NCBI GenBank assembly: GCA_902781895.1
Contig: CACZLA010000001.1
Coordinates: 62,001-126,000 of the forward strand
From: an uncultured Lachnospiraceae bacterium
Lineage (GTDB): Bacteria; Bacillota; Clostridia; Lachnospirales; Lachnospiraceae
Direction: 5' to 3'
DNA length: 64,000 nucleotides
Of the stretch, positions 48,201-64,000 are shown in pieces. Both the position numbers and the translations under genes were made by a program. A model generated the notes under the pieces. The model had not been told where the DNA came from, searched no databases, and saw only the letters and a list, made by a program, of their open reading frames with translations. How positions within the stretch are numbered: position 1 is the first letter of the stretch; each line of letters begins with the position of its first letter.

Positions 48201-48562
48201 GTCTTCATACCCGAATATCCATCGGTAAGTATACTGGGATAGTACTCGCTGTCCTGCTCAATAATAAGAACCTTACCCTTAAATTCTTTATGAAGCTTAT
48301 CCTCTATCTCCTGGGCTTTTCCCGCTATCTGTATCGTATCCTTTAATATAACAATTGCATCAAAACGCTGTGGGTTGATAAGCGTAAAAATGCTGCTTTC
48401 CCCCTCTTCACGATCGGCCGAATTCTGATACTTTCGATACATGGAAAAAACACAGACATCTATTCCATGTCGGAATCCGACCTCTATAAAGCCCTCTATA
48501 AAGTTTCTCTGGTAGTATTCATCCGCCTGACCTACCAGGATTGCAGCCCTCTTTCTCCCCAT
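45215..48562 (-). CDS. LacI-type sensor / EAL phosphodiesterase / beta-repeat fusion
   Basis: A 1115-residue protein without signal peptide or membrane segments. Residues ~1-285 are a LacI-type periplasmic-binding fold (AVANDCMAIGLCKAI, DVAVVSYDS) without helix-turn-helix, closed by GKSCGC (283-286). Residues ~300-500 are an unassigned linker domain. The EAL domain (~505-735) has YEAL at 529-532, VVELTEE, DDYGTGYSNVS, VKIDR and QGYY, so it should degrade cyclic-di-GMP. Residues ~775-1100 contain about a dozen short repeats of the type GSLLINAYNSGFCGIGNG / VNIGAGKGGEIHINRGAYEF / VGVGSIDGSNVKIKF, as in right-handed beta-helix carbohydrate-binding domains. Such a domain in a cytoplasmic protein is unusual. 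It follows the YhhN gene by 71 bp on the same strand. Confidence 0.87.
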   Translation of the reverse strand: MGRKRAAILVGQADEYYQRNFIEGFIEVGFRHGIDVCVFSMYRKYQNSADREEGESSIFTLINPQRFDAIVILKDTIQIAGKAQEIEDKLHKEFKGKVLIIEQDSEYYPSILTDGYSGMKTAVEHIVKDHQFKDIAFLNGKKWHSHSVQRLQAFKDVLRENGLEVKEDNIVHGDFWYTSGEQCVEQLLSRNGHLPEAVAVANDCMAIGLCKAIINRGYRVPEDVAVVSYDSTEEGRTSPIPITSVMIPARECGEYSAEYMAAYFSGGEPEEFLTEPHLVVGKSCGCKNCQTYMKDIRRKSWDTVISSEGYFSVNSTTPDDLMLQNNILGYLSMVYSYAYQIPEAESFHLCLNDTWQNMDTEPDVLFNVSGYSDSMLHAIQYYRSGTEGKVSLNEHFPTEDMLPELNNEYDEPRAYFFTPVYAESKCFGYAVVSYGSVPRCYDEVYRLWIRSVTRHLEMLRRITLQRHLSEKKEDDRVWRVIGSTGGNEVILSETEKKELELVEEILDNNLLEYYFQPIVKVSDGSIYSYEALMRSTTRQRISPLKIIKYANMINRLQDVESATFLNVLGLIEKNHDFIFGKKVFINSIPGVQLRQKDAPQVQQLLSKYKDIVVVELTEEAEMEQADLERMQKMISDLGIETAIDDYGTGYSNVSNLLRYLPNYVKIDRSLLSEIQFHPSKQHFVREIIEFCHENNIMALAEGVETSEELRMVIHLGADLIQGYYTAKPSEHIHQNIEDKIRKEIRDYVQESQDGVTKRIYTAGKTNRVLLSNLKKFGNTDIVIPSVNVTYKDISIIGTPGLETDIHMRIEAGYQGQIILENVYLSNLKDRPCIEIGDNSEVSLILKGENKLINGGIIVPPSSTLSIEGTGSLLINAYNSGFCGIGNGPDETHGVLTFNQEGLIRIISGGPKGVNIGAGKGGEIHINRGAYEFDTRGGVSVAIGAHEGAVKLDILNCMIASNMSLVEGVCIGCREGDAEIDICHSTFDFDVGGTECVGVGSIDGSNVKIKFRDTIGKMDLRGEESTCIGALHGSTDFVMENGSLQMENVGTKALGIGGYSEDTRFLLNNGDIKEEVHNQSGVDTYATDENFHIVNGRARFIVNDQEMKRNSKQDYS

Positions 48563-48633: not shown

Positions 48634-49299
48634 TCACTCGATAAAAAACATAGATAATGCAATGAGCAGCTGACCCACATAGTAAAGTGAAAGATTCATC
48701 ACTCTCAGAAATGCATCATGAATCCTTCCGTTAAGAACCATTATCACATCCGATACAGTAAACAGAACCGCTCCCACAGCAAACCATATCCGAAATGCAC
48801 TTCCGTCATGAATAACATTTCCGACCGCTATGGCAGTCATAATACTGACCACTCCTATGTAGAAAACTCCGAACGCCTTGTACAGCTTATCCAGCTCAAC
48901 GTTTTTGTAAATGATATACAGTATAACCGCAGCCACACCCACACCTATAGATATACTGATCTTAAGATTCCAGGACTCGGGAATCTCAGCAGCAATATAC
49001 ATGATGTGTCCTATAAAAAACATAAAGGAACCGGCCATCATAAATACTTTATTGGTATGATTCCTGAAATTATATCTGAGTGCCAGAAGAATATCCCCTA
49101 TCATTCCAAAGGTAAGACCCAGACATATCAGCAGATTCTTATCTGCCATAAAGCCGATGACAACAAAAACCATTGCCGCCGATCCCTTGAAGAAGACCGC
49201 TGGCGCATACTTGCCTTTATGATCGACAGCTATAAAAAATCCCTGTAGAACCATTCCTATAACTGCCAGAATAATAACCGGAATAAAATAATCCATCAT
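48634..49299 (-). CDS. YhhN/TMEM86 family membrane protein (lysoplasmalogenase-like)
   Basis: A 221-residue protein with about eight membrane helices and YhhN signatures: GDILLALRYNF, FFIGHIMYI, AVLFTVSDVIMVLN and YYVGQLLIALS. Characterised relatives cleave the vinyl-ether bond of lysoplasmalogens. Many rumen and gut clostridia make plasmalogens, so the activity fits (inference). It is the last gene of the acyl/NRPS operon, 28 bp after the NRPS-like gene, which points to a lipid-related job for that operon. Confidence 0.85.
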   Translation of the reverse strand: MMDYFIPVIILAVIGMVLQGFFIAVDHKGKYAPAVFFKGSAAMVFVVIGFMADKNLLICLGLTFGMIGDILLALRYNFRNHTNKVFMMAGSFMFFIGHIMYIAAEIPESWNLKISISIGVGVAAVILYIIYKNVELDKLYKAFGVFYIGVVSIMTAIAVGNVIHDGSAFRIWFAVGAVLFTVSDVIMVLNGRIHDAFLRVMNLSLYYVGQLLIALSMFFIE

Positions 49300-49327
49300 A
49301 TCTTCTCGTAAGCTTCATCTGCTTATA

Positions 49328-52300
49328 TCAGAATTTCTTTCTTCTCCTGAGTATGGCTTTTACCTTACCCAACATTTTATGCTCTTTAATCTCTTTCCTA
49401 AGCTGTCCTATAGTTACATTTTCCTGAGAATCATGGGATACAAGAACTTTTGTAACCTTCATGAAAAGCTGGTTATATTCATTCATGCTTTCATCACTGT
49501 ATACATCAGATGCATAGTCCAGAAGGAGACGAAGTCCATCCGAACCGTCAAGCACCTCCATATCCATCATGGTCTGTGTGGCAGCCTGATTTTGTCTGAT
49601 ATCTACGGTTTCAAGATCCATTTCGTCATCTACATCACGAAGATCCTGCTGATACAGAAGATACGCAGCCTCTATATCTGTTCCGTGAGTCTTCAGATCT
49701 ACATAGGGATAACAGCTGTGTTCTATACCCTTCTGAACCTGGTCGTGAACCTCCATATAGATATCTCTCAGAAATGCATGATCATCAAAGCAGACTGCAA
49801 CCGGAAGTTCTCTGAAAAGAAGGCCTACAGTTGATATCATTTCCATATCCTCACGGCCGTTATATATCCAGTTCAGCATTATATTTTTCTTCTTGTTGTA
49901 GATAGCCATAGTCAGGCCTGCAACCGTAATAAAGAATTCATTTCTTGAAATCTTGTAAAGCTTTTCTATCTGAGAGATTTCTGCGGAGGACACTCCCATC
50001 TCGGATACTATTTCTCCGAGTTCATTAGAATTCTTTCGCCCTTTATCAGGTTTCGGAAGCAGTTCCCACTCAACACCTTCGTACTTTTCCTCAAAATATT
50101 TTTTGCTTTCTTCATAAAACTCGGTTCCAATGGAATCCTCACGTTTCTGAAGCATCAGATAGTAGTAATCCTTATTTAATTCAAGCCCCATATAAGCCTG
50201 CATGATATTTCCCATGAATATCTTGAAGGAGGTTCCGTCAAAGATAGAATGGTGAACATCAAAGAACACATACCCCGCTTTTTCCGTTTCGAATACCCTG
50301 CATCTGTGCAGCTTATGAGGAACCTTCTGATCGCATATCTTAAATGGCTGAACCAGATAATCCTTTACTGTATATTTAAACTCCCAGTCTGTCTTTTTCT
50401 CCACCAGGATGGGACTTAAAACCTCCGGCGTATAGGTCTGAACTATCTCTCCGTCATCATTAAAGGAATAGGTAGTGAGAAGAACCGGATGGTTCTTTAT
50501 GGCTGTTTCCAGCGCTTCAGCCATCCTGTTCATATCATAGTCATCCTTATCAAACTTAAGAAGTGTGAACAGATTGTACATAGTCGACATAGGAGTCTTA
50601 AGCTGATAATCAACCATATATAACTGCTCGGTGGTAAGCAGATGAGGCTGTTTCATTGATATATCATTTTTCTCATCCGGTGACATTCCGTCATCCTCGG
50701 CATGATTCTTTTCATAAAGTTCTGCTATCTTCTCAATAGTACGTCCCCTGAAAATAACCGATGCACTGAGACCCGGAAGCTCACTTACTGAAATAAGTTC
50801 TATAGCACTGAGGGAATCTCCTCCCATTTCATAAAAATCATCCCGTATTCCGACTCTTTCCAGCTTCAGCACCTTTTGGAAGGCCTCACAAAGTGCCTTC
50901 TGAATATCAGTTTCCGGTGGAACATAGTCATTTGCAAAATCCTTGGTATCAGGCTTTGGAAGGGCACTTCTGTCCATCTTTCCGTTTGCTTTCATAGGGA
51001 TCTCATCTATCCTGATATAGTATGCGGGAATCATATAGTAGGGGAGTCTTTTCAGAAGCTCCTCTCTCATTTCTTCCTTATCAACTTTTACATCTGCAGT
51101 ATAGTACGCACAGAGGAATGACTGCCCCTGTTCCTCGAAGCCTCTGGCTGCTGCCCAGTCTATGCCCAGCACACTCTTTACTGCAGCCTCCACCTCCGCG
51201 GGCTCGATACGATTTCCGTTTATCTTTATCATATCGTTTGAACGGCCAAGCAGAACAAAATCACCATTTGGATTTTTAATAGCCAGATCACCTGAATGAT
51301 AGAAATCAGGCTTAAATGAATCTGCCGTCTCCTCAGGAAGATTCATATATCCTCTGACATATTTATTTTCATAACAAAGCTCGCCCATCTCTCCATCGGA
51401 AACTTCATTTCCTTCTTCGTCCAGAATCACTATATTCTTATCAAAGAAGGGCTTTCCTATAGGACAGGTATCATACGCTTTATCGATCTTGAAAATAGTC
51501 AGAACGCAACCGGATTCACTCATGGCATATGCATTATAAAGCTCCACATTTTCCATATAAATATCATTTGCCGGCTCACTGGCAACTATGATCTTCTTTA
51601 AAAATGGTCCGGTTTTGCCTGAAAACTTTCTTGCATAAGAAGGAGTCAGGAATGTGCCGTTAATCCTTTTCTCAAGCAAAAATCTCATAAGCTTAAGGGG
51701 GTTTTTAAGAGTAGCATAGGATACAATATAAGTCTTAACATCTCCATAACAGAGCGTTACTATGGCAAGTATAACAGCGGCAACAAAATTGAGAGGACAC
51801 ATGATGGATATTCTGTCCCCGGGTTTCAGAAACATGCAGCTATCGCCGCCCACCGACTCATACGCTTCCATCAGATTTCCATACTCATGAAGTACTCCTT
51901 TGGGCTTTCCCGTAGTACCGGAGGTATAGATGGCATATGCCGCATCATGTTCATCAGCCTCCTCAAAGCCTTCAAGGGAAGAAAGCATCGTTGCTTCGTT
52001 CCATGTTTCTTCGTTCAGCTCTACCTTACAGCCTGAATCTTCTCTGATATAGTTTATTCTCTCCGGGGCATAACTGTCTTCTACTAAAGCAAAGGCAGCA
52101 CCTGCTCTCCATATACCTACCATGGCAATGATGGGCATTATACCTCTCGGAAGATTTATAAGAACAAAATCTTCCTTTCCGACTCCACGATCCTTAAGCC
52201 AGTGGTATATCTTCCCGGACAGCTCATTTAACTCGGAAAATGTAATTCCCTTTGGATGAATATCATCAAAAAGAACTGCCTTACCCGGATACTTCTCCAT

Positions 52301-52333
52301 ATTTTCAATAATATTTCCAATTATTGATTTCAT
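49328..52333 (-). CDS. NRPS-like protein with A-PCP-C domain order
   Basis: A 1001-residue protein. The adenylation domain (~1-475) has A3 YTSGTTGKPKG (136-146), A5 NAYAMSESG (267-275), A8 LLGRSNDMIKINGNRIEP and A10 PMKANGKMDR (catalytic Lys451). At A4 the text is PLNFVA (180-185), so the Asp that binds the amino group of alpha-amino acids seems absent. A carrier domain (~475-540) has GGDSL with Ser507 for the pantetheine arm. A condensation domain (~565-970) has the active HHSIFDG (694-700). A single module ending in C suggests transfer of one activated acyl unit to a free acceptor, as in D-alanylation or amino-acyl lipid formation. It overlaps the esterase gene by 4 bp. Confidence 0.9.
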   Translation of the reverse strand: MKSIIGNIIENMEKYPGKAVLFDDIHPKGITFSELNELSGKIYHWLKDRGVGKEDFVLINLPRGIMPIIAMVGIWRAGAAFALVEDSYAPERINYIREDSGCKVELNEETWNEATMLSSLEGFEEADEHDAAYAIYTSGTTGKPKGVLHEYGNLMEAYESVGGDSCMFLKPGDRISIMCPLNFVAAVILAIVTLCYGDVKTYIVSYATLKNPLKLMRFLLEKRINGTFLTPSYARKFSGKTGPFLKKIIVASEPANDIYMENVELYNAYAMSESGCVLTIFKIDKAYDTCPIGKPFFDKNIVILDEEGNEVSDGEMGELCYENKYVRGYMNLPEETADSFKPDFYHSGDLAIKNPNGDFVLLGRSNDMIKINGNRIEPAEVEAAVKSVLGIDWAAARGFEEQGQSFLCAYYTADVKVDKEEMREELLKRLPYYMIPAYYIRIDEIPMKANGKMDRSALPKPDTKDFANDYVPPETDIQKALCEAFQKVLKLERVGIRDDFYEMGGDSLSAIELISVSELPGLSASVIFRGRTIEKIAELYEKNHAEDDGMSPDEKNDISMKQPHLLTTEQLYMVDYQLKTPMSTMYNLFTLLKFDKDDYDMNRMAEALETAIKNHPVLLTTYSFNDDGEIVQTYTPEVLSPILVEKKTDWEFKYTVKDYLVQPFKICDQKVPHKLHRCRVFETEKAGYVFFDVHHSIFDGTSFKIFMGNIMQAYMGLELNKDYYYLMLQKREDSIGTEFYEESKKYFEEKYEGVEWELLPKPDKGRKNSNELGEIVSEMGVSSAEISQIEKLYKISRNEFFITVAGLTMAIYNKKKNIMLNWIYNGREDMEMISTVGLLFRELPVAVCFDDHAFLRDIYMEVHDQVQKGIEHSCYPYVDLKTHGTDIEAAYLLYQQDLRDVDDEMDLETVDIRQNQAATQTMMDMEVLDGSDGLRLLLDYASDVYSDESMNEYNQLFMKVTKVLVSHDSQENVTIGQLRKEIKEHKMLGKVKAILRRRKKF

Positions 52334-54018
52334 TTACTACTCCTCTTTTTTATTTCTGTTCTTATAAGATGTAACAAACCTATCCCACCGGCCACAAAAG
52401 CAGTCAGTGCAAACAGATTTCTATACACAAATGGAATATTTGCCGAATGCTCCTTATGATTTCCGTTATAATAATTATCTGTGAGCGGCATAAGAAGCTT
52501 TCTCTCATATCTCCTGATATCTTTACCCACACTTATCGGGTCATCCAGCAGCATGGTAAATCTGTTTTCACTGCTATAGGGTTCCCACTCTGCTCCTTCT
52601 ATGGACGGATTGCCTGTTCTTGCAAAATTCGCCCACATATTCTGAACTTTTTCGGAAAGCTCTGCATTTATGTTTTCGCCCGAATAAATGGTTTCTGAAA
52701 GATTTCCGAAAACATAAGCCAGCTCCACAGCGTGACACGCTCCCAGATGAGGATGCTTCGATGGATATTTCCAGAAATACATATAGACTTTTCCGCCATT
52801 ATCAGACTGATGCTCTGACTGACGGATAGCCGGCAGGCGGAAAATGATCTCATTATAAAGATCGGTTATTACCCAGGGTTTCTTTAAAAATGTTTTCAGA
52901 GGATTTTTCTCTTTATGTTTCTTAAAGAATCTTTTTGTTCTTTTCTTATTTCCGGCACCAAGCTTTTTACTGTCATTCTCGAACATATAATAAGCACAGA
53001 TCTTATAGATACTGAGCCCGCCTATATCCTTGATCCAGTATCTCATCTCATCCTTGTTTGTGCCTATTATCATGTCAACATGAGATGCTTCTCCGGACTT
53101 ATATGCTCCGTATAAATCCTGAGGAAGAACAACTCCGTCTCTTTCCGGGTAATTTGTATCATCAAATCTGTCTATTACTTTTTTCAGTTGCTCTTCGGAA
53201 AGAGCACATAAATCCTCCATGGAATGAGCGCCGGTCTTTTTCATCAGCTTATCTGTCAGATACATACATTCCCCGGGACTGTATGTCAGAGAGAGTGAAC
53301 CGCTCTCTGCTATCACTCTTTTAAAAAGTCCCTTCGCCTCCGGTATAAGAGGAAGCAGTGATACGCTTCCGCCTCCCGCTGACTCACCGAAGATGGTTAC
53401 ATTTTCAGCATCTCCTCCAAAGGAGCTGATATTCTTTTTTATATATCTGAGAGCCTCAACCTGGTCCAGCAGTCCCAGATTCCCGCCGGTCTTATAATCC
53501 TCACCTCCCGGAACTCCGGAAAAGTCCATAAATCCAAGGATTCCGAGTCTGTAGGTTATAGTTACAAGAACTATATCAGGATGATTCTTCACAAAATTAT
53601 GTCCGTCGTAAAGGGGATCCGCAGTTCCGCCCCATCCATATGCACCACCATGAATAAAAACCATTACCGGTCTTTTTTCTCCGGCATATTTTCCGGCAGT
53701 CCATATATTCAGATAGAGACAGTCCTCGCTCTGATGAAAAAGAGATGCCCTTTCTGATTCAGACCTGCTCTGCAGCGGTGAAGCCCCATTATAAAACGCT
53801 TCAAACACCTCGTCTTTCCTGCTGACTGAAACAGGTGATTTCCACCTCAGCTCTCCCACCGGAGGCTCAGCAAAGGGAATACCCTTAAAGGCCACAACTC
53901 CGTCATCGTTTTTCCCCACAAAAACACCATTTATACAGGAGGCAGCTACTGCGCTGTCATATGGACCGACTATCTGACTGTTTTTTTTGAAATTATCATC
54001 AACTGACTTTATTCTCAT
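52330..54018 (-). CDS. Type B carboxylesterase with C-terminal membrane anchor
   Basis: A 562-residue alpha/beta-hydrolase. The nucleophile elbow is FGESAGGGS; the oxyanion region is VFIHGGAYGWGG; a Glu-acid is expected in ...TNKDEMRYW; and the catalytic His lies in HLGACHAVELAYVFG. No signal peptide. Residues ~533-555 (LFALTAFVAGGIGLLHLI) form one helix followed by RTEIKKRSSK, so the enzyme is probably tail-anchored facing the cytoplasm. It overlaps the ligase gene by 20 bp and the NRPS-like gene by 4 bp, so production is coupled. It might release or trim an acyl product made by them. Confidence 0.88.
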   Translation of the reverse strand: MRIKSVDDNFKKNSQIVGPYDSAVAASCINGVFVGKNDDGVVAFKGIPFAEPPVGELRWKSPVSVSRKDEVFEAFYNGASPLQSRSESERASLFHQSEDCLYLNIWTAGKYAGEKRPVMVFIHGGAYGWGGTADPLYDGHNFVKNHPDIVLVTITYRLGILGFMDFSGVPGGEDYKTGGNLGLLDQVEALRYIKKNISSFGGDAENVTIFGESAGGGSVSLLPLIPEAKGLFKRVIAESGSLSLTYSPGECMYLTDKLMKKTGAHSMEDLCALSEEQLKKVIDRFDDTNYPERDGVVLPQDLYGAYKSGEASHVDMIIGTNKDEMRYWIKDIGGLSIYKICAYYMFENDSKKLGAGNKKRTKRFFKKHKEKNPLKTFLKKPWVITDLYNEIIFRLPAIRQSEHQSDNGGKVYMYFWKYPSKHPHLGACHAVELAYVFGNLSETIYSGENINAELSEKVQNMWANFARTGNPSIEGAEWEPYSSENRFTMLLDDPISVGKDIRRYERKLLMPLTDNYYNGNHKEHSANIPFVYRNLFALTAFVAGGIGLLHLIRTEIKKRSSK

Positions 54019-55714
54019 TTTCTGTTTCCTCTTCCAGCTGGCGATATGCTACTTTTCCTACCAGAGTTTTCGGAAGTGTATCACGGAATTCTATTTCCTT
54101 AGGCAGTGCATACTTAGCTATACGCTTCGACGCATAATTCATCAGAGTTTTCTTGGTATTTTCATCTGCCGGAACGCCCTGTTTCAACATGATAAATGCC
54201 TTTGGAACCTGCATCCTGTAAGTATCCGGTACACCGATAACACAGCTCATCTGAACCATCTCATGTGCATCGAATATGTTCTCAAGCTGTGCAGGATATA
54301 TATTATATCCCGAAGAAACTATCATTCGTTTTGAACGTCCGTGGAAATATACAAATCCTTCTTCATCCATAGATCCAAGGTCTCCTGTATAAACCCATGT
54401 AAGACCATCCGAATGGGTCTGAAGAGTCTTTGCAGTCTCCTCAGGATGCTTGATATATTCTTTCATAACCGTAGGACCTGCAAGAAGGATTTCTCCCTCT
54501 TCTCCGTAAGGAAGCTCCTCGTCTGTTCCCGGTTTTACTATCTTGATATAGGTATCCGGAAATGGTATTCCTATACTGCCCTCCTTAAACTTATTGATAG
54601 GAGTCAGACAGCATGCAGTAACCGTTTCGGTTGTTCCATATCCCTCTCTGATCTGTACAACAGCTTTATGATCATACAGAAATGTATCAAATTTCTTCTT
54701 AAGCTCCACCGACAGTGAATCACCACCGGAAAAAACTCCCTTCAGACAGCTGTAATCGGCCTTTTCCATATTCGAAAGTCTGAGGAGTGCCTCATACAGT
54801 GTAGGAACACCTGCAATAAAATTACATTTATACTTTGTAATGAGCTTAGAATAGCTATCTGCCGTAAAGCGGGGAACAAGGACACATCTTCCTCCCTGAG
54901 CCAGCATGGAATGTATACAAACTCCAAGTCCGAAGCCATGGAAAAGTGGCATAGCCGAGAGCATTTTGTCCCCGGGCCTGTACATGGGATTTGTAGCTAC
55001 TATCTGGGCAGACAGAGCATTAAAATTCAGATTTGTAAGAAGAATACCCTTGGTTGTTCCTGTTGTTCCACCGGAATAAAGTATGGCAGCAGGATCATCT
55101 CCTTTACGCTTAACCTTATAATTCCAGAAACAGGATTTTCCGAGACGCATAAAATCCTTCCACATTATTACAGGAGCATCCTCGGGAATCTTTCTTATTT
55201 TACGTCCCTCAGTAAGCATATATCCCACCTTAAGGGGACGGGATAAAGCATCCTTTATTCTGGCAATAACGATATTTACCGCACAGGTTTTTGCCCTTAT
55301 ACTTTCAAACTTATGATAGAACTGATCCAGGGTAACCACAGTAACACTCTCTGATTCATTGATATAGAACTGAAGTTCCTTCTCACTGGATAAGGGATGT
55401 ACCATACTTGCTACCGCACCTATCATATTTACTGCATAAAACATATAGATAGCCTGAGGGCAGTTTGGCATAGCTATTGTTACACGGTCATTCTCTCGTA
55501 CTCCGATGGTACGAAGACTTCTGGCACATTTATTTATATTTTCCACCATTTCCTTATAGGTGGTGGACTTACCCATAAAATCAAATGCAATATTATCCGG
55601 ATGAAGCTTGGCATTTTTCTCAAGCATCTCTACCATAGACCCCTGAAAATACTCCAGAGTTGCGGGTACATCACCTAAACTGTCAAGCCAGGGGCGTTTT
55701 GCTGTTATTTCCAT
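53999..55714 (-). CDS. Acyl-CoA synthetase / acyl-AMP ligase
   Basis: A 571-residue class I adenylate-forming enzyme. The P-loop is ILYSGGTTGTTKGI; the second motif is REGYGTTETV; the hinge and A8 are VYTGDLGSMDEEGFVYFHGRSKRMI; and the C-terminal Lys is in LPKTLVGKVAYR. This architecture fits fatty-acyl-CoA ligases. It may supply activated fatty acid to the acyltransferase or condensation domain of the same operon; no dedicated carrier protein gene besides the NRPS-like carrier domain is present. Gap of 15 bp after the acyltransferase gene. Confidence 0.9.
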   Translation of the reverse strand: MEITAKRPWLDSLGDVPATLEYFQGSMVEMLEKNAKLHPDNIAFDFMGKSTTYKEMVENINKCARSLRTIGVRENDRVTIAMPNCPQAIYMFYAVNMIGAVASMVHPLSSEKELQFYINESESVTVVTLDQFYHKFESIRAKTCAVNIVIARIKDALSRPLKVGYMLTEGRKIRKIPEDAPVIMWKDFMRLGKSCFWNYKVKRKGDDPAAILYSGGTTGTTKGILLTNLNFNALSAQIVATNPMYRPGDKMLSAMPLFHGFGLGVCIHSMLAQGGRCVLVPRFTADSYSKLITKYKCNFIAGVPTLYEALLRLSNMEKADYSCLKGVFSGGDSLSVELKKKFDTFLYDHKAVVQIREGYGTTETVTACCLTPINKFKEGSIGIPFPDTYIKIVKPGTDEELPYGEEGEILLAGPTVMKEYIKHPEETAKTLQTHSDGLTWVYTGDLGSMDEEGFVYFHGRSKRMIVSSGYNIYPAQLENIFDAHEMVQMSCVIGVPDTYRMQVPKAFIMLKQGVPADENTKKTLMNYASKRIAKYALPKEIEFRDTLPKTLVGKVAYRQLEEETENENKVS

Positions 55715-55729
55715 TTGTTTATACCTACC

Positions 55730-56614
55730 TTAATAATCTATTTTTTCTGTAAAAGGCTTATCGAGAATTTCCGGATTTTCCAGAATCTTACGAAGAAGCT
55801 TCAGACTCTTTGAATAATAATATCCATCACCGATTCGTTCATCCAGAGTCAGACCAAGGGTAATAACCGGATGCACATCATTGGTTCCGTCTTCCTTCCA
55901 ATCAGAAACCATATGCTTCTTACCGATCACGGCGAAAAACGAATTGGTCCCCCAATTATTTAAATGATGATATCCGCTGTCCATACCGATAGAACCGAGA
56001 TTTGTCAGGAATATGGACGCATAATTCGGATCGGTTTTTATAAGATCATATGGAACCTTTCCTCTGCGATCCAGGAAGAAAAGAATTTTCATAAGAACAA
56101 ACAGAACACCACGGGGGAGCTTTAAAAGTTTTTCCATAAAGTCAGTGCTGTTATCAACCGAATCAGCCCTGCGGCACTCGTGTATCTCCTTCATTATGGA
56201 TGTATGCAGAGTATCGATGGTATCATTTTTAGTATATTTCTTAAATGCAAGGGCTTCCTCCCCTTTGTCATCGAACTGCTTTTTGACTACAAATGCAACG
56301 GAAATATTATTTCTGAGATACATACGATTGCCTGAAATAAACCGGTTCAGTCTTGGTCTATGTACGACAGTCTTAACCATAGCTGCAAGGATAACATGAA
56401 AATAAGTATATTTATCCTCCGTCAGTCCTTCATTTTTCTTAGCCAGATAAGCATCTATGGGACGTGTATCCACATCAACCTTCATGTAAGCTTCATTGTC
56501 CGTACGATTCGGCATAAGATAGGGCATAAACTGATTCATAGCCGGAACCTCATCCCTAAGCCACCTTCCGTCAAATCTGTCTCCTCTGCGTCTCTTTCCC
56601 GGTTTCCTTTTCAT
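55730..56614 (-). CDS. CAT/E2-fold acyltransferase-like protein
   Basis: A 294-residue protein resembling the catalytic domain of 2-oxoacid dehydrogenase E2 acyltransferases and chloramphenicol acetyltransferase (YFHVILAAMVKTVVHRPRLNRFI, ASIFLTNLGSIGMDSGYHHL). The lipoyl domain is absent. At the active site, where E2 has H-x-x-x-D-G, it reads LDERIGDGYYYSK: the Asp-Gly is kept, the catalytic His is Glu. So it may work differently or be a scaffold. An N-terminal basic stretch (KRKPGKRRRGDRFDGR) could bind membrane. It sits between the ABC permease and the acyl ligase, 12 and 15 bp away. Confidence 0.82.
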   Translation of the reverse strand: MKRKPGKRRRGDRFDGRWLRDEVPAMNQFMPYLMPNRTDNEAYMKVDVDTRPIDAYLAKKNEGLTEDKYTYFHVILAAMVKTVVHRPRLNRFISGNRMYLRNNISVAFVVKKQFDDKGEEALAFKKYTKNDTIDTLHTSIMKEIHECRRADSVDNSTDFMEKLLKLPRGVLFVLMKILFFLDRRGKVPYDLIKTDPNYASIFLTNLGSIGMDSGYHHLNNWGTNSFFAVIGKKHMVSDWKEDGTNDVHPVITLGLTLDERIGDGYYYSKSLKLLRKILENPEILDKPFTEKIDY

Positions 56615-56626
56615 TTTTCTTCTCCT

Positions 56627-59600
56627 TTACTCTTCTGCTATTTCTTTTAATGAAAATTTTCTGATCTTCCAGAATGATACAGTACTTATGATCGTCATAA
56701 ATACAGCTTCTATCAGAGCCGAAATAGTCCATATAACAAGACTTGGTTCCCTGATATACTGTACATCAGATGGTTCAAGTATTTTCATTACCAACGAATT
56801 GGTCGACATACCGATTATCATTGCCAGCAGAATACCTACTAATGTTACAAATATAATTTCCCTTACAAGATACCCCACAGTCTGACTAAGTGAAAAACCA
56901 TTAACACGCATAACTATAAGTTCCCGTTTCTTATGCATTACAAATATATTATTCAGATTGGTTAACACAAGGAATGACATGATTACTGCATTTGCCAGCA
57001 TAAATATCGCTATGGAATTATATGTGATCTCTCCGGTTTTGAACCTTTGCAGGAAAGCTACGTCATCCTCTACACTTATATTACCCGATATTTTCTTTAT
57101 TTCATCACATACCGCGTCTTTATTGTCCTTATTATAGATCATAAATATGGTATTATAATCCGGGTCATCTCCAAACTCTTTCCTGTAAGCATCCTTTGAC
57201 ATTACTGCAAGTCGACCCTGATAATTCTGAAAAATACCTTCTATCGTAACAGGCACCTTTGTCATATAAGACGAATACATTTTTATTTCGTCACCCGTAT
57301 CGAATCCATAGTTTTCACTGGTCCTGTTCTGAAGCAGGATTCCTTCCTGCGGAAGAGTAATTAATTCTTTAGTCTCCGGATCTTTAAGTATGATAGCCTT
57401 ATCTATCTCCTCCGGATCTGCAGTAAGAATAACTATCGCTTCCGTTCTGTCACCCACATAATACAAATGGGTTTCTTCAGATGCCTCAATCCAGCTGACA
57501 TCATTACGTTCAAGACATTCCTTTGTTTTTTTCTTTTCATCTTCCGTAACCGCACTACTGAATGTCAGCTTTGTATCATAAGCATAAACCTCTTCAAGCT
57601 CAGCATTCATCATACCGGAAAAAGCATATCTTGCCGTAATTCCTATGCCTATAATAATAACACTTCCCATAATTATTACTATCGTAAGTATTACACGTAC
57701 TTTATCATCCTTAATATTTCTGATAATAAGCCTGGAATAGAGTGTTCCTATACCATGAGATTTTTTTCCTCTCTTTTTTTCCAGATTTCTTTCCTTCTTT
57801 ACAGTAACACCCTTCATCAATATGGAAGCGGGGCTTTTCAGCAGTCCTGTACATGCAAAAAATGTAGTAATGGCACATACCAGTACCGCACCTACCGCAA
57901 CAAGTATTGTTGAAAGTATCGGAATCTGCGGTTCTACATATGTAAATGTATACATACCTTCACGTAGGATCATAGAGAGCACAAGTTTAGACAGGATATA
58001 TCCCATTAAGACACCTGTGATGGATCCTACTATTGCTGCCGAAACGCCGAATAACATATATTTTTTCAGCACCTCATTATTTCGGAATCCAAAGGCCTTT
58101 GTTGTTCCGACCTGTTTGATCTGCTCTTCTATGATCATGGTAAGTGTTGAGAAACATACCAATGCTCCCACCAGTAAAAACAGTATTCCGAAAACCGTTC
58201 CCGCGCTATCTATTGAAGCTATAGTCGAATATAAATCCATATAACCGCCGTTGCTTCGACGATCTATCAATACAACTGTTGCCGTAATTTCGGAAACAGC
58301 TTTCCTGCCGTCTTCTAACTGATCTTCAGCCTCCTGACGTTTTTTATCAAGCTCTGCCTGCGCATCACTGATTTCCTTTTCTTTCTCCGCCTTTGTCTTT
58401 TCTAATTCAGCCCATCCGTCTTCTATCTTTTTACGTCCTTTTTCTTCTTCCTCCTTCATAAGACGTTTTGCGTCTTCAAGTTTCTTTAAACCTGCTTTAT
58501 ACTGTGCTTCTCCTTCGGCTATCTCAGCCTCAGCATCTGCAATCTCCTTTTTCTTCTGATCCATCAGCTCACTGATCTTTGAGAAACCACCATTATCGAA
58601 AAAGGTCCTGATTAGTGAAATGTTTTCCCTGAGATCCTCGGGTCCGCCAATGATTGTTGTCGGATAATATTCTTCTCCCAGAAACTCTGCAGCCTCTGAA
58701 ATATCTGTCATATACTGCTGATTCAGAAGGTCTACGTATTCATTTACAGCCTCATCAACTGCCTCCTGATAATTCGGGTCATCCTCACTACAGGAATTGA
58801 GCTTAGACTCTATACTGTTTAATCGAGAAAGAATATCGTCTTTATCAGCAGTCAGTCTGTTTAACAATGATTCCGCATATTCCAGCTTTTTACGTGACTC
58901 CTCAAGGGTTCTTTTAGCCTCATCCAGTTTTGCTCTTGCAGCCTTCAGTTCAGCCTCACCGCTGTTAATCTTTGCCTGAGCTTCTCTGAGTTTTTCTTCC
59001 AGCTCCTTTTCCCCGTCATTTAACTTCTTTTCAGCGTCAGCAACTTCTTTTTCCAGCGCGGCTTTCCCGTCATCTATTTTCTTTTGTGCATCAGCAAGCT
59101 TTGCTTCTGCTTCCTCATTCTCTTTGTCTATCGTTTTATTTAATCGCCTGCGCAATCTTTCAGTGGCTTCTTTTTCAATATATTCTCTCGCCGCCTGAAT
59201 CCTGTCTTCTACATCCTTAATATTTTCATAATATTCATCACTGAATATATCTTTATCATATTCACCATCAAGACGGATAACTGCCTGCATATCACAACCA
59301 TCCAGGCTTTCGAGATCAAAAGCATCTCTCGGTATCGCTACACACCCTTTTAATCCTACAACGATATATTTAGGATGCTTCATTACTCCTACTACCTTAT
59401 ATGAATCACCCTTAAGAATCTTATCAGCAAAAACAGCATCAGCTACTGACATTGTTACTTCATCACCCACTTCAAGATGGGCACTATCAGCAAGCTCAGT
59501 GGATATTATACATTCATCATTTTTTTGTGGTAAAACGCCCTCTACCACCTCAGGTACATCTATATGCTGTGTTAAGGAAAACAGATCGACATTACTCTGA

Positions 59601-59899
59601 CTTTTTCCACTATTCAAGCTGACATTTACGCTTTCCATTCCCTCAACATCAGCGACACCTTCAATATTCTTAAGGTAATTCATATCATCTTCCGACATTC
59701 CGACAGTTGAGACAAAGCTGTAATTTTCAAAGCTTCTGTCATCGTAAATGTCTTTAGTATCCTTCATGAATCCCCTGTACATATACCTGGTGGTAAAAAA
59801 TCCACCGGTTCCGAGCATCACAATAAGACATATCGAAAGATATGATACAATTCTTTTTCGTATATTTCTTACTGCGTCTACTCTCTGTGTCTGTTTCAT
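56627..59899 (-). CDS. FtsX/MacB-type ABC permease with long extracellular coiled coil
   Basis: A 1090-residue protein with two FtsX repeats and about eight membrane helices: one at ~17-38, three at ~575-700, one near 740-765 and three at ~965-1080. Between the first helix and the first FtsX part lie a MacB-like domain and two coiled-coil blocks (~230-360 and ~440-540: EAEAKLADAQKKIDDGKAAL, KLEDAKRLMKEEEEKGRKKI). The MacB class moves lipids, lipopeptides or transmits force rather than importing. It pairs with the GAF-ABC ATPase encoded 34 bp upstream. Long periplasmic or extracellular coiled coils of this kind are common in Gram-positive FtsX proteins of unknown role. Confidence 0.9.
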   Translation of the reverse strand: MKQTQRVDAVRNIRKRIVSYLSICLIVMLGTGGFFTTRYMYRGFMKDTKDIYDDRSFENYSFVSTVGMSEDDMNYLKNIEGVADVEGMESVNVSLNSGKSQSNVDLFSLTQHIDVPEVVEGVLPQKNDECIISTELADSAHLEVGDEVTMSVADAVFADKILKGDSYKVVGVMKHPKYIVVGLKGCVAIPRDAFDLESLDGCDMQAVIRLDGEYDKDIFSDEYYENIKDVEDRIQAAREYIEKEATERLRRRLNKTIDKENEEAEAKLADAQKKIDDGKAALEKEVADAEKKLNDGEKELEEKLREAQAKINSGEAELKAARAKLDEAKRTLEESRKKLEYAESLLNRLTADKDDILSRLNSIESKLNSCSEDDPNYQEAVDEAVNEYVDLLNQQYMTDISEAAEFLGEEYYPTTIIGGPEDLRENISLIRTFFDNGGFSKISELMDQKKKEIADAEAEIAEGEAQYKAGLKKLEDAKRLMKEEEEKGRKKIEDGWAELEKTKAEKEKEISDAQAELDKKRQEAEDQLEDGRKAVSEITATVVLIDRRSNGGYMDLYSTIASIDSAGTVFGILFLLVGALVCFSTLTMIIEEQIKQVGTTKAFGFRNNEVLKKYMLFGVSAAIVGSITGVLMGYILSKLVLSMILREGMYTFTYVEPQIPILSTILVAVGAVLVCAITTFFACTGLLKSPASILMKGVTVKKERNLEKKRGKKSHGIGTLYSRLIIRNIKDDKVRVILTIVIIMGSVIIIGIGITARYAFSGMMNAELEEVYAYDTKLTFSSAVTEDEKKKTKECLERNDVSWIEASEETHLYYVGDRTEAIVILTADPEEIDKAIILKDPETKELITLPQEGILLQNRTSENYGFDTGDEIKMYSSYMTKVPVTIEGIFQNYQGRLAVMSKDAYRKEFGDDPDYNTIFMIYNKDNKDAVCDEIKKISGNISVEDDVAFLQRFKTGEITYNSIAIFMLANAVIMSFLVLTNLNNIFVMHKKRELIVMRVNGFSLSQTVGYLVREIIFVTLVGILLAMIIGMSTNSLVMKILEPSDVQYIREPSLVIWTISALIEAVFMTIISTVSFWKIRKFSLKEIAEE

Positions 59900-59933
59900 A
59901 AAATTACTAATGCCTTAATAATCTGTTTATAAT

Positions 59934-61163
59934 TTACCAGGTCAGTTCCCTTGCATGTAGAGGATTCATATTGATTCTTATACTGGATATAAGACCGCCT
60001 CTAAGCTTTACCACACGGTCTGCCATCTTTGCAATTTCCGGATTATGAGTGATCATAATTACGGTTTTATTTTGATTTCTCACTATTTCTTCAACTATAT
60101 CCAGAACCTCGATACTCGTATCATAATCCAGTGCCGCCGTCGGCTCATCTGCCAGGATCAGCTTCGGATTCTTTGTTATGGCACGGGCTATGGATACTCT
60201 CTGCTGCTGACCACCACTCATCTGGGATGTAAAGTGATCTGCATACTCCGAAAGCCCCACCTGTTCCAAAGCCTTTTCCGGAGACACGGGATCGTTACTG
60301 ATCTCCGCAATAAACTTCAGATTTTCCAATGCGGAAAGATTTGGCATCAGATTATATGACTGAAATATAAATCCTATATAATCCCGCCTGAATTCCGTGA
60401 GTTCTTTTTGCGTCGGTTTTGAGAAATCCTTACCATCCAGCGTTATCGTGCCGTCTGTCATGGGGTCCATTCCACCGATGATATTCATAAGTGTACTTTT
60501 ACCACATCCGCTTTCACCCAGTATAACCAGAAACTCTCCCTGGTATATGTCGAGATCTATCCCCTTCAATACACGAAGAATATTTTCTCCTGACAAGAAC
60601 TCCTTTGTAATCCCCCTGAGCGAGATGATGGGGTCACGTTTCTTCTGAAGAGGAAACTTAAATCCCTTATCATCAATATCCAGTGCCACAAGTGCGGACA
60701 TATTACCGGCAAGCCTTCTGTCTTCCTTTCCGAACTTCTTTCCATTCTTCTTATTAAACATCTGAATGCAGCCAAATGGTTGTCCACCCGGTGTATTTAA
60801 CGGAGTAACCATCTGACTGTTAAAGGCTAATCCCAGAGTTTCAACAGTACCGCTTAGCGGACTGTCAGCAGGAATCTTACCATTCATCACTATGCTCTCT
60901 GCCGTACTTATTACTCGCCCGATGATTCCCTGATTCTTCGGTATGCTAAGACCGGTCATATCCATTCCGGTGGTGCAGGTAATAATAACCACACTATCAC
61001 TATCATTATCTAACAGCCATACAAAACCACCTTCACAGTCGAGTACATCTGTCATAATTCCAAGGCAGTTCGCCAGGGCACTTTCCATCTGATTTTCTTC
61101 CTGGAGTGCATCCGTTAATTCCCAGATGGCCTGAGTATATTTTTCATTTAATTTATCATCCAA
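59934..61163 (-). CDS. GAF domain fused to ABC transporter ATPase
   Basis: A 409-residue fusion. Residues ~15-165 form a GAF sensor domain (LANCLGIMTDVLDCEGGFVWL, NQGIIGRVISTAESIVMNG, CIQMFNKKNGKKFG). Residues ~178-400 are a MacB/LolD-type ATPase: Walker A GESGCGKST (216-224), Q-loop FQSYNLMP, signature MSGGQQQR, Walker B LILADEPTAALD and switch MITHNPEI. Regulatory GAF domains are not usual on ABC ATPases, so transport is probably gated by a cytoplasmic ligand. The start is TTG at 61163 with GGAGG 9 nt upstream. It is the first gene of a seven- or eight-gene operon. Confidence 0.9.
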   Translation of the reverse strand: MDDKLNEKYTQAIWELTDALQEENQMESALANCLGIMTDVLDCEGGFVWLLDNDSDSVVIITCTTGMDMTGLSIPKNQGIIGRVISTAESIVMNGKIPADSPLSGTVETLGLAFNSQMVTPLNTPGGQPFGCIQMFNKKNGKKFGKEDRRLAGNMSALVALDIDDKGFKFPLQKKRDPIISLRGITKEFLSGENILRVLKGIDLDIYQGEFLVILGESGCGKSTLMNIIGGMDPMTDGTITLDGKDFSKPTQKELTEFRRDYIGFIFQSYNLMPNLSALENLKFIAEISNDPVSPEKALEQVGLSEYADHFTSQMSGGQQQRVSIARAITKNPKLILADEPTAALDYDTSIEVLDIVEEIVRNQNKTVIMITHNPEIAKMADRVVKLRGGLISSIRINMNPLHARELTW

Positions 61164-61360: not shown

Positions 61361-64000
61361 TTATATCATTACAACTTCACCAAGCTGCTTGCATATCTCA
61401 AGATACTTATCAATAAAGGCATCAGCGTCCTGCTTTATAAACTCCGTATCATTATCTCTTGCTGCAAACTCATGTCTCTTTGCCCGCTCGCTGAAATCCT
61501 TAAGGCCGATGGTAAGCATCGTGCCCTTTATGGAATGCGCTTCTATCTTATAGGCTGCATAGTCCTCTGCCGCCAGGAATTCTCTCATCCTCTCAGCACG
61601 GTCAGGTCCTTCCTTTGAAACATCACCAACTATCTCCATAAGAAGATCTTCTTCATCAGCACAGTAGCTGAGGGCAAGTTTATAATCCAGTCCTTCGATG
61701 GATGCAAGTCCTTCTTTTCCCGATATAGTGGTTTCTGATGCAATATCAATATCATCTGAAGCACCTGTTTCCTTCACCTTCTCCTGAGGAAGCATCTTCT
61801 TCACAGTCTCTTCCAGCACGCCGGCATCCAGAGGTTTTGTAAGATAATCATCAAAGCCCTCGTTCATATACATCTGTCTGCTGCCTGCTACGGCATTCGC
61901 TGTGAGTACAACAGCTTTGGTATCTTTATTAAGGGAATCTGCATCCTCTCTGATCATGTGGAGTGTTTCTATTCCATCCGGCTCCGGCATCATATGATCC
62001 ATAAGAATAAGGTCATACTTTTTCTCTTTACAAAGCCGGAGAGCATGAGTTCCTGTACTGCAAAGATCCGGCACTATACCATTTCTCTTCAGGAACAGCT
62101 TTACTATGGTCAGGTTCGACTGGTTGTCATCAACTGCAAGTATTTTCGCATCCGGGGCAGTAAAGCTGCAGGCTACGGCAACTGCGGCTGACTCCGGTCT
62201 ATGGTTCATGAAATCATTTCCAAGAAGCTCTCCCGAGTTATATTTCACAGGAAGCTTCACCCAGAACTCTGAACCTACACCGTACTCGCTCTCGACTCCC
62301 ACTTCTCCGCCCATAGAGTCAACTATACTCTTAACTATGGCAAGACCAAGACCCGTTCCTTCTATGTTTGCATTGGACTTAACATCCGCTCTTGAGAAGG
62401 CTTCAAAGAGATGCTCCTGTTCTTCCGGACGTATTCCTTTTCCCGTATCCTTAACACGAAGGCTCAGTTCATAGTTCTCGGCATTATAGCTGCCGCCAAC
62501 CGCAAGCGTTATGGTTCCGGTCTCTGTGTACTTGACAGCATTATTCATCAGATTAACTATTATCTGTCTTATTCTGAACTCATCACTGATCACCACGTTC
62601 GGCACTTCGCCGGTGACCTCAACACTGAGTGCAAGTTGTTTTTCGTCAGCTCTTTCCCTTATAAGTTGCGTGACATCATAAAGCATGTCAGACATTAGGA
62701 ACTCTGACTCCCTGATTTCCAGCTTGCCGGATTCAATCTTCGTGAAATCAAGTACATCATTTACAAGCATAAGAAGCATCTTTCCGGAGGTCTTGATACT
62801 TCTTGAATATTCCTCAACATCTCTATCTTTATTTTCCCTGAGGATCATCTCGTTCATACCCAGGATAGCATTAATAGGTGTTCGGATCTCATGGGACATG
62901 CTGGCAAGGAATCTTGTTTTCGCCTCGGAAATATCGATGGCCCGCTGCTTCTCCATATTAATCTTTCTCAGGTCGTGCACCTGCTGAATTACAATAAATG
63001 TAAGAAGGAATCCAAGTCCGATAACGATAGGTATGGATACCTTGATGGCCTCTATCTCCAGAATGACGTCCATCAGCTCGATCAGACATCCAATGAGGAA
63101 GCCCATAAATCCGATACATGTATATTTGTACTCACTTGTATTTCTACGAATAACATCAACCACCAGAATACCTATACCTGATACAGCCAGGAATACAAGC
63201 ACTCCGTTTGCGAGATTGAGCACCCTGTAGAAAGGAAGTATTCCCGTAAAATGTAATATCGGAAAACCAACTGCATTGATAGCAGCCACTATCATCAAAA
63301 ATGATACAAACTTTTTATATTTTCCCTTCTGCAGAGATGACAGATATATAACCAGTCCAAGGGGTATCATAGAGCAGAACATAAAGCTCAGGATTCCGTT
63401 TACGTGATTTACGCCAAAGACATACGGGAACAGGAATGAGTCCGTGATGAGCCATGCAGCTATGGTAAATATTCCCAAAGCTCCGTAAAGCATATCTATT
63501 TTCTGTTTGTACATCAGGCTGAGAACAATACTTACCACAAATGCAACAAAGGAAAAGATCAGTATGATAAATGAAAGTACAAAAAGCAGACCGTCAGTTT
63601 TTACAAAATGAAAAAGCGTTCCGGTTCGGGTTCCGATAAAGAAATCCGGAGTCTCCTTATCCACATCCTCAACCGCATGTCTGACAACTGTGATTTCGGC
63701 GCCCGAATCCGATTCCTTAAGGGGAACTGACATATAGAATCTCTTGTAGGGTGCACCCGGGATATTTACATCTCTTTCTTCAATAAAATCCTTTCGGAGC
63801 TCTCCATTTATATATACCGAAGCATCCTTTCGGGTATCAAAATAAAGATATTCGTTATCGACTACATCCTGAGGAAGAGTTGTAGTAAGCAGCTGATCAC
63901 CACTTTTTTCTTCCTTAACCGCCCAGTCCTTTACCTGTCGGATTGATTCACGTTCTATAACGTCACTTCTGTTTATTAATCCATAATAAATAAAAACAAA
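61361..64000 (-). CDS. Hybrid sensor histidine kinase (7TM - HisKA - HATPase - REC - HPt), 5' end outside window
   Basis: The frame is open to base 64000, so the true start lies beyond; an internal Met at 63733 is not the start. The visible N-terminal ~115 residues (IYYGLINRSDVIERESIRQ...) look like a 7TMR-DISM-type extracytoplasmic sensor, before about seven membrane helices. Then come HisKA (FLASMSHEIRTPINAILGM), HATPase_c (NNAVKYTETG, DTGKGI, GTGLGLAIV), a receiver (AVDDNQSNL, LILMDHMMPEPDG) and an HPt domain with phosphoacceptor His in EAHSIKGTML. This is a full phosphorelay in one protein; the output regulator is not in view. The related kinase at 1-1412 could be a paralogue. Confidence 0.92.
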   Translation of the reverse strand, partial: FVFIYYGLINRSDVIERESIRQVKDWAVKEEKSGDQLLTTTLPQDVVDNEYLYFDTRKDASVYINGELRKDFIEERDVNIPGAPYKRFYMSVPLKESDSGAEITVVRHAVEDVDKETPDFFIGTRTGTLFHFVKTDGLLFVLSFIILIFSFVAFVVSIVLSLMYKQKIDMLYGALGIFTIAAWLITDSFLFPYVFGVNHVNGILSFMFCSMIPLGLVIYLSSLQKGKYKKFVSFLMIVAAINAVGFPILHFTGILPFYRVLNLANGVLVFLAVSGIGILVVDVIRRNTSEYKYTCIGFMGFLIGCLIELMDVILEIEAIKVSIPIVIGLGFLLTFIVIQQVHDLRKINMEKQRAIDISEAKTRFLASMSHEIRTPINAILGMNEMILRENKDRDVEEYSRSIKTSGKMLLMLVNDVLDFTKIESGKLEIRESEFLMSDMLYDVTQLIRERADEKQLALSVEVTGEVPNVVISDEFRIRQIIVNLMNNAVKYTETGTITLAVGGSYNAENYELSLRVKDTGKGIRPEEQEHLFEAFSRADVKSNANIEGTGLGLAIVKSIVDSMGGEVGVESEYGVGSEFWVKLPVKYNSGELLGNDFMNHRPESAAVAVACSFTAPDAKILAVDDNQSNLTIVKLFLKRNGIVPDLCSTGTHALRLCKEKKYDLILMDHMMPEPDGIETLHMIREDADSLNKDTKAVVLTANAVAGSRQMYMNEGFDDYLTKPLDAGVLEETVKKMLPQEKVKETGASDDIDIASETTISGKEGLASIEGLDYKLALSYCADEEDLLMEIVGDVSKEGPDRAERMREFLAAEDYAAYKIEAHSIKGTMLTIGLKDFSERAKRHEFAARDNDTEFIKQDADAFIDKYLEICKQLGEVVMI

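What the first reader, a model, noticed from the sequence alone, without database searches (positions are those of the whole stretch)
48634..61163. Seven-gene operon linking a GAF-gated ABC exporter to acyl activation and a single NRPS-like module
Seen: tightly spaced same-strand genes (gaps of 34, 12, 15 bp, overlaps of 20 and 4 bp, then 28 bp) for a GAF-ABC ATPase, coiled-coil FtsX permease, CAT/E2-like acyltransferase, acyl-AMP ligase, tail-anchored carboxylesterase, A-PCP-C protein and YhhN protein. Known: A-PCP-C and acyl ligases build acyl-amide or acyl-ester bonds, MacB-type exporters move lipids or lipopeptides, YhhN proteins cleave lysoplasmalogens. Inference: the operon makes and exports, or attaches, an acylated small molecule or a modified membrane lipid. 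It does not match any biosynthetic cluster I can name.
Basis: partly seen in the sequence, partly recalled or inferred. Interest (0 to 1): 0.85.

Follow-up and report, generated by a model that had tools for sequence, protein, structure and literature searches.

The report
Mosaic acyl-lipid and ABC-transporter gene run
In one bacterium of the family Lachnospiraceae, three gene pairs that in the relatives examined occur apart (a predicted ABC transporter, a predicted acid-activating ligase with a partner of predicted acyltransferase fold that lacks the usual catalytic histidine, and a one-module synthetase with a predicted membrane-anchored esterase) lie in a single run of seven genes, which likely is one transcription unit and would remodel fatty-acyl molecules at the membrane.

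Summary
All seven genes, their order and spacings are as described. One dedicated seven-gene pathway is not supported by conservation. Relatives show three separate modules: a GAF-ABC/FtsX transporter pair (17 of 18 fetched loci), a ligase/E2-fold pair (40 of 63 fetched loci across Clostridia), and an A-PCP-C synthetase with a tail-anchored carboxylesterase (12 of 14 close loci, in the other gene order). No fetched locus held two modules by sequence match; one (L139) has a remote FtsX-ABC transporter beside the ligase and E2-fold genes. In trees the window's ligase and E2-fold protein group with one other family (ligase 87% identical), so the pair probably moved sideways.

Three details change the chemistry. 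The E2-fold protein has Glu at the catalytic-His position in 64 of 64 sequences, plus an invariant YHH motif. The A domain has Val or Ala at the alpha-amino-binding Asp position in 24 of 24, so its substrate is probably not an alpha-amino acid. The permease is an 8-TM type VII protein, closest in fold to YbbP and BceAB. Most likely function (inferred): acyl remodelling or extraction of a membrane lipid. The widespread His-less E2-fold/ligase pair is the most interesting part.

The parts
59934..61163 (-). GAF-domain ABC ATPase (409 aa, TTG start), first gene of the run
   Evidence: GAF-containing relatives at E <= 1e-100 in 16 of 60 congeners (in G038 the gene is split) plus two further copies in the own genome, one cut by a contig start
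56627..59899 (-). Type VII ABC permease, FtsX-like (1090 aa): 8 predicted TM, two MacB-like periplasmic domains, long helical (coiled-coil) hairpin within residues 228-536
55730..56614 (-). E2/CAT-fold protein (294 aa) with Glu259 in place of the catalytic His and invariant Y215-H216-H217
53999..55714 (-). AMP-forming carboxylic-acid (fatty-acyl or aryl) ligase (571 aa), frequent neighbour of the E2-fold gene
52330..54018 (-). Type B carboxylesterase (562 aa) with a C-terminal hydrophobic anchor and no hydrophobic N-terminus; GESAG and CHAVEL motifs intact
49328..52333 (-). Single-module A-PCP-C synthetase (1001 aa); PCP Ser507 and C-domain HHxxxDG intact; Val184 at the alpha-amino-binding Asp position
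48634..49299 (-). YhhN-family membrane protein (221 aa), last gene of the run

Best explanation
The run is a mosaic of three gene pairs that in the relatives examined occur apart, plus a YhhN gene; it likely is transcribed as one unit, and its products would remodel acyl chains of a membrane lipid or lipid-like compound. Inferred steps: (1) The GAF domain would sense a cytosolic ligand and gate the ATPase. (2) The 8-TM type VII permease would pull an amphiphilic substrate out of the membrane by mechanotransmission, as proposed for YbbAP. (3) The ligase would activate a free fatty or aryl acid as acyl-AMP/acyl-CoA, and the E2-fold partner would transfer that acyl group with an active site that does not use the E2/CAT histidine. 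(4) The A-PCP-C protein would load a carboxylic acid that is not an alpha-amino acid and join it to an acceptor. (5) The tail-anchored esterase would hydrolyse or edit esters or thioesters at the membrane surface. (6) YhhN would clear lyso (vinyl-ether) lipids. Shown directly: the anatomy, the separate occurrence of the pairs in the loci fetched, the residue changes, the folds of two predicted models and the tree placement of the ligase and E2-fold protein. That the modules act on one substrate is not shown.
Against: No second genome with the whole run was found, so selection for joint function is undemonstrated and the run could be chance packing. The esterase has no N-terminal signal, so it cannot be given the place that TesA has in YbbAP-TesA. 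Window ligase and E2-fold genes have local G+C (41.9 and 40.3%) against 58.8% for the L241 locus, so direction and recency of transfer are unproven. The two proteins' trees do not agree throughout: L243-L246, close by the E2-fold protein, carry ligases from another clade, and in the ligase tree the families are intermixed. 23 of 63 E2-fold loci have no ligase next door (several at contig ends). The PAP2-like label rests on matches below Pfam's cut-off.
Confidence: 0.5

Rival explanations
1. A dedicated biosynthetic operon: ligase, E2-fold protein and A-PCP-C make one acylated amide or ester, which the ABC transporter exports.
For: Tight same-strand packing with overlaps; gene families fit. GAF-ABC occurs in 6 of the 11 congeners with the NRPS-esterase pair against 16 of 60 congeners overall (Fisher p 0.03), not corrected for kinship.
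Against: The modules are not found together in any fetched locus. In relatives the NRPS gene occurs with only an esterase or a MATE gene beside it.
Confidence: 0.15
2. Chance packing: unrelated modules share a transcription unit without a common substrate.
For: Neighbours of each pair differ from locus to locus; no second genome holds the whole run.
Against: Most modules point to acyl or lipid chemistry; at the joins between modules the genes are 12 bp apart (FtsX to E2-fold) and overlap by 20 bp (ligase to esterase); an FtsX-type transporter also lies beside ligase and E2-fold genes in L139.
Confidence: 0.25
3. A detoxification or resistance unit: the type VII transporter removes a membrane-active compound, as BceAB does, and the esterase and acyl enzymes repair or inactivate it, under control of the hybrid histidine kinase upstream.
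Against: [quoted passage not shown] whether the kinase controls the run is untested.
Confidence: 0.1

Closest known systems
E. coli YbbAP-TesA (type VII ABC transporter with esterase)
   Same: Separate ATPase and a duplicated FtsX permease with two periplasmic domains; best full-length fold match; a carboxylic-ester hydrolase is encoded in the same run.
   Different: 8 rather than 10 TM (PMC12646458), an added long helical hairpin, a GAF domain on the ATPase, and an esterase that is tail-anchored without a signal instead of the periplasmic TesA.
E2 acyltransferase core of 2-oxoacid dehydrogenases / chloramphenicol acetyltransferase
   Different: Catalytic His replaced by Glu in 64 of 64 locus sequences and in 120 of 120 listed homologues, one of which is the window's own; 294 aa with only the E2 catalytic-domain match; frequent partner is an acyl ligase.
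NRPS elongation modules such as linear gramicidin synthetase LgrA
   Same: A, PCP and C domains with carrier Ser and HHxxxDG.
   Different: Stand-alone module in the order A-PCP-C; Val in place of the alpha-amino-binding Asp; paired with an esterase or MATE gene.
YhhN/TMEM86 lysoplasmalogenases
   Same: Pfam YhhN family.
   Different: No activity tested; no YhhN match in the fetched neighbourhoods of the other modules.

Membership tests
YbbAP-type transporter (YbbAP-TesA) | FtsX permease with two MacB-like periplasmic domains, separate ATPase | tested here: met
YbbAP-type transporter (YbbAP-TesA) | 10 TM helices with linking TM5-6 | tested here: not met
   8 hydrophobic segments, 8 long membrane helices in the model; 10 TM from PMC12646458
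YbbAP-type transporter (YbbAP-TesA) | Periplasmic esterase partner | tested here: inconclusive
   The esterase in the run has a C-terminal anchor and no hydrophobic N-terminus; complex formation untested
MacB exporter | ATPase fused to one 4-TM, one-periplasmic-domain permease (layout recalled) | tested here: not met
   Separate ATPase gene, 8 TM, two periplasmic domains
E2/CAT acyltransferase | E2/CAT fold | tested here: met
E2/CAT acyltransferase | Catalytic His in (D)HRxxDG | tested here: not met
   Glu aligned to that His in E2 chains; DERxxDG in 64 of 64, DHR in 0 of 64
NRPS module | Phosphopantetheine Ser and C-domain HHxxxDG | tested here: met
   Window has GGDS and HHSIFDG; across 24 sequences Ser in 24, first His in 21, second His and Asp in 24, Gly in 23
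NRPS module | Asp that binds the alpha-amino group (Asp235 in GrsA, numbering recalled) | tested here: not met
   Position aligned to the LgrA FDGS Asp: Val in 23, Ala in 1, Asp in 0 of 24
Type B carboxylesterase | Pfam COesterase with nucleophile and His motifs | tested here: met
   2.4e-100; GESAG and CHAVEL in 13 of 13
YhhN lysoplasmalogenase | Hydrolysis of lysoplasmalogen | not testable with these tools
   Family match only; a 1411-aa frame with DUF2229 is in the genome, a domain that I recall from PlsA-type proteins, but plasmalogen synthesis is not shown
Conserved seven-gene biosynthetic cluster | Genes kept together in relatives | tested here: not met
   0 of 63 E2-fold loci match the window's FtsX, esterase, NRPS or YhhN, or its GAF-ABC above 150 bits; 20 GAF-ABC/FtsX stretches and 24 NRPS loci likewise lack the other modules. 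Stretches were 4 to 23 kb, some cut by contig ends

The most novel reading that the evidence does not exclude
The ligase/E2-fold pair is an undescribed acyl-transfer system of Clostridia: an E2/CAT-fold enzyme whose chemistry moved from the canonical His to a Glu plus an invariant Tyr-His-His motif, fed by its own acyl ligase, acting on a membrane lipid. In this bacterium the pair has been grafted between a GAF-gated type VII lipid extractor and an esterase/A-PCP-C pair, making an extract, deacylate and reacylate machine.
Probability: 0.2. Interest if true: 0.8.

Novelty: new variant of a known kind. Interest (0 to 1): 0.45.

Why it matters
Where one search shows a source name for the E2-fold protein's relatives, it is '2-oxo acid dehydrogenase subunit E2' (3 rows) or 'hypothetical protein' (3 rows). 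Yet the protein lacks the residue that defines E2 chemistry and often sits beside an acyl ligase or lipid enzymes. Correcting this would reassign a large family (3298 homologues at E <= 1e-10, of which 120 were checked for the motif) and point to an unstudied step in anaerobe lipid metabolism. The run also suggests how type VII transporters may become combined with new acyl enzymes.

Tried and rejected
A conserved seven-gene cluster: rejected. MacB-like exporter: rejected on architecture. Large ORFs (about 990-1400 aa) near the E2-fold gene in L203, L207, L211, L212, L213, L215 and L217, first taken for possible further FtsX permeases: rejected, they match GH38, SLH, carbamoyl-phosphate synthase, biotin carboxylase, GH2, DNA polymerase and GH38 families, and ABC genes in L212, L213 and L215 lie near BPD-type permease genes of importers. 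A transfer signal from base composition: not seen. Plasmalogen link for YhhN: only circumstantial. Diabolic-acid lipids of Butyrivibrio as the substrate: considered (listing; PMC8788747, passages only), with no evidence here for or against. Paper searches for GAF-domain ABC/FtsX in Butyrivibrio (0 papers), for A-PCP-C relatives with partner-switching genes (0 papers) and for the ligase/E2-fold pair (4 papers, none about such a pair by title) found no description. Listings on Butyrivibrio and NRPS or biosynthetic clusters were seen but not read. The library holds open-licence papers only. Structure searches used single chains, so the trimer in which an E2 active site forms (recalled) was not modelled; the segment 215-221 with the YHH motif is among the poorly predicted parts (pLDDT under 50).

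Full report
Observation. The seven genes are present on the minus strand at the stated coordinates, with the stated gaps and overlaps, and Pfam supports every family assignment. The window lies at 62001-126000 of a 127,290-base contig of a 2.35-Mb, 87-contig assembly. I take the genus to be that of Lachnospiraceae bacterium AC2029, because a congener (G002) has a contig of the same length, 3,859,732 bases, as that strain's record.

NRPS and esterase. The A-PCP-C protein was searched in 99 genomes (own, 60 congeners, 38 of the same order). Eleven congeners have 59-61% identical full-length relatives and five more have relatives at 38-39%. With the named records, 14 distinct close loci were examined (L043-L053, L063, L065, L066; L064 is a second copy of L052). 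In 12 of the 14 a carboxylesterase gene follows the NRPS gene (48-51% identical to the window's); in L065 and L066 a MATE gene does. The window has the reverse order, esterase first. The C-terminal anchor is present in 11 of the 12 esterases; the twelfth (L046) is cut by a contig end. Of the 24 NRPS loci annotated, none matches the window's FtsX, E2-fold protein or YhhN; matches to its ABC and ligase there are weak (81 bits or less).

Ligase and E2-fold pair. The E2-fold protein is found at E <= 1e-20 in 47 of 397 family genomes, at E <= 1e-60 in 30 of 391 class genomes (own genome included in both) and at E <= 1e-75 in 89 of 300 genomes of one other family, f59. I take f59 for Oscillospiraceae-like because named database relatives about 70% identical to the window protein carry that name. 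From these searches and, 63 loci with the gene were fetched, mostly the best matches (two from one genome, three nearly identical). In 40 of 63 the ligase lies within 1.6 kb on the same strand (12 of 27 genus, order and family loci, 16 of 20 class loci, 12 of 16 f59 loci); 0 of 63 match the window's FtsX, esterase, NRPS or YhhN, or its GAF-ABC above 150 bits. A further locus, L257, has only the ligase, next to an LPLAT gene. Other same-strand neighbours within 2.6 kb are PAP2-like (12 of 63; the label rests on matches below Pfam's cut-off), LPLAT (11), HGSNAT (4), DegV (4) and metallo-beta-lactamase (3); in L134 the PAP2-like and E2-fold parts share one frame. In many loci the remaining neighbours are unrelated metabolic genes.

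Trees. In trees of 42 ligases and 63 E2-fold proteins (window included in each), the window ligase is sister to L241 of f59 (100/100, 87% identical over 571 columns), and the window E2-fold protein groups with L241 and L242 (96/81) inside an eight-row clade that is otherwise all f59 (100/100). The only other congener with a ligase at E <= 1e-120 is 53% identical. The pair therefore seems to have moved between families. Against a simple story: families are intermixed in the ligase tree, L243-L246 carry ligases of another clade, L242 has none nearby, and base composition is local (41.9 and 40.3% against 58.8% at L241). Direction and date are not shown.

Reading. The run is a local mosaic. The most economical joint function is acyl remodelling of a membrane compound, but no result here shows that the modules share a substrate. 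L139, where an M56 peptidase, an FtsX permease and an ABC gene lie beside ligase, metallo-beta-lactamase and E2-fold genes, is the only hint seen that an FtsX-type transporter combines with the pair elsewhere; its FtsX is too remote to match the window's. The widespread His-less E2-fold protein with its ligase is the feature most worth an experiment.

Noticed in passing
L054-L058, L060-L061 (distant A-PCP-C relatives): A-PCP-C genes near partner-switching signalling genes: SpoIIE, HATPase_c_2 and STAS genes, a 459-aa protein without Pfam or PDB match and a MATE (L055); STAS-APH fusion and MATE-HATPase fusion (L060); a GH3-type amide synthetase (L056). Looks like an undescribed system; only L055, L056 and L060 were scanned, in part.
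   Followed up: partly
L139:9529-18205: M56 peptidase, FtsX, ABC, ligase, metallo-beta-lactamase and E2-fold genes in a row: a second transporter/acyl-enzyme combination.
   Followed up: partly
61361-64000 and L009:1362-5289: Hybrid histidine kinase gene 197 bp upstream of the run, preceded 52 bp upstream by a second AMP-binding ligase gene cut by the contig end.
   Followed up: partly
45215-48562: Protein with a LacI-like sugar-binding domain, an EAL domain and a C-terminal part of about 390 residues without Pfam match, just downstream of YhhN.
   Followed up: no
L126:5884-10484: MATE-HATPase_c_2 fusion next to the E2-fold/ligase pair, echoing the fusion near A-PCP-C in L060.
   Followed up: no
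L043-L053: One gene cluster lies near the NRPS-esterase pair in 9 of 14 close loci, mostly on the opposite strand; the one member scanned is a Na/H exchanger-type gene.
   Followed up: partly
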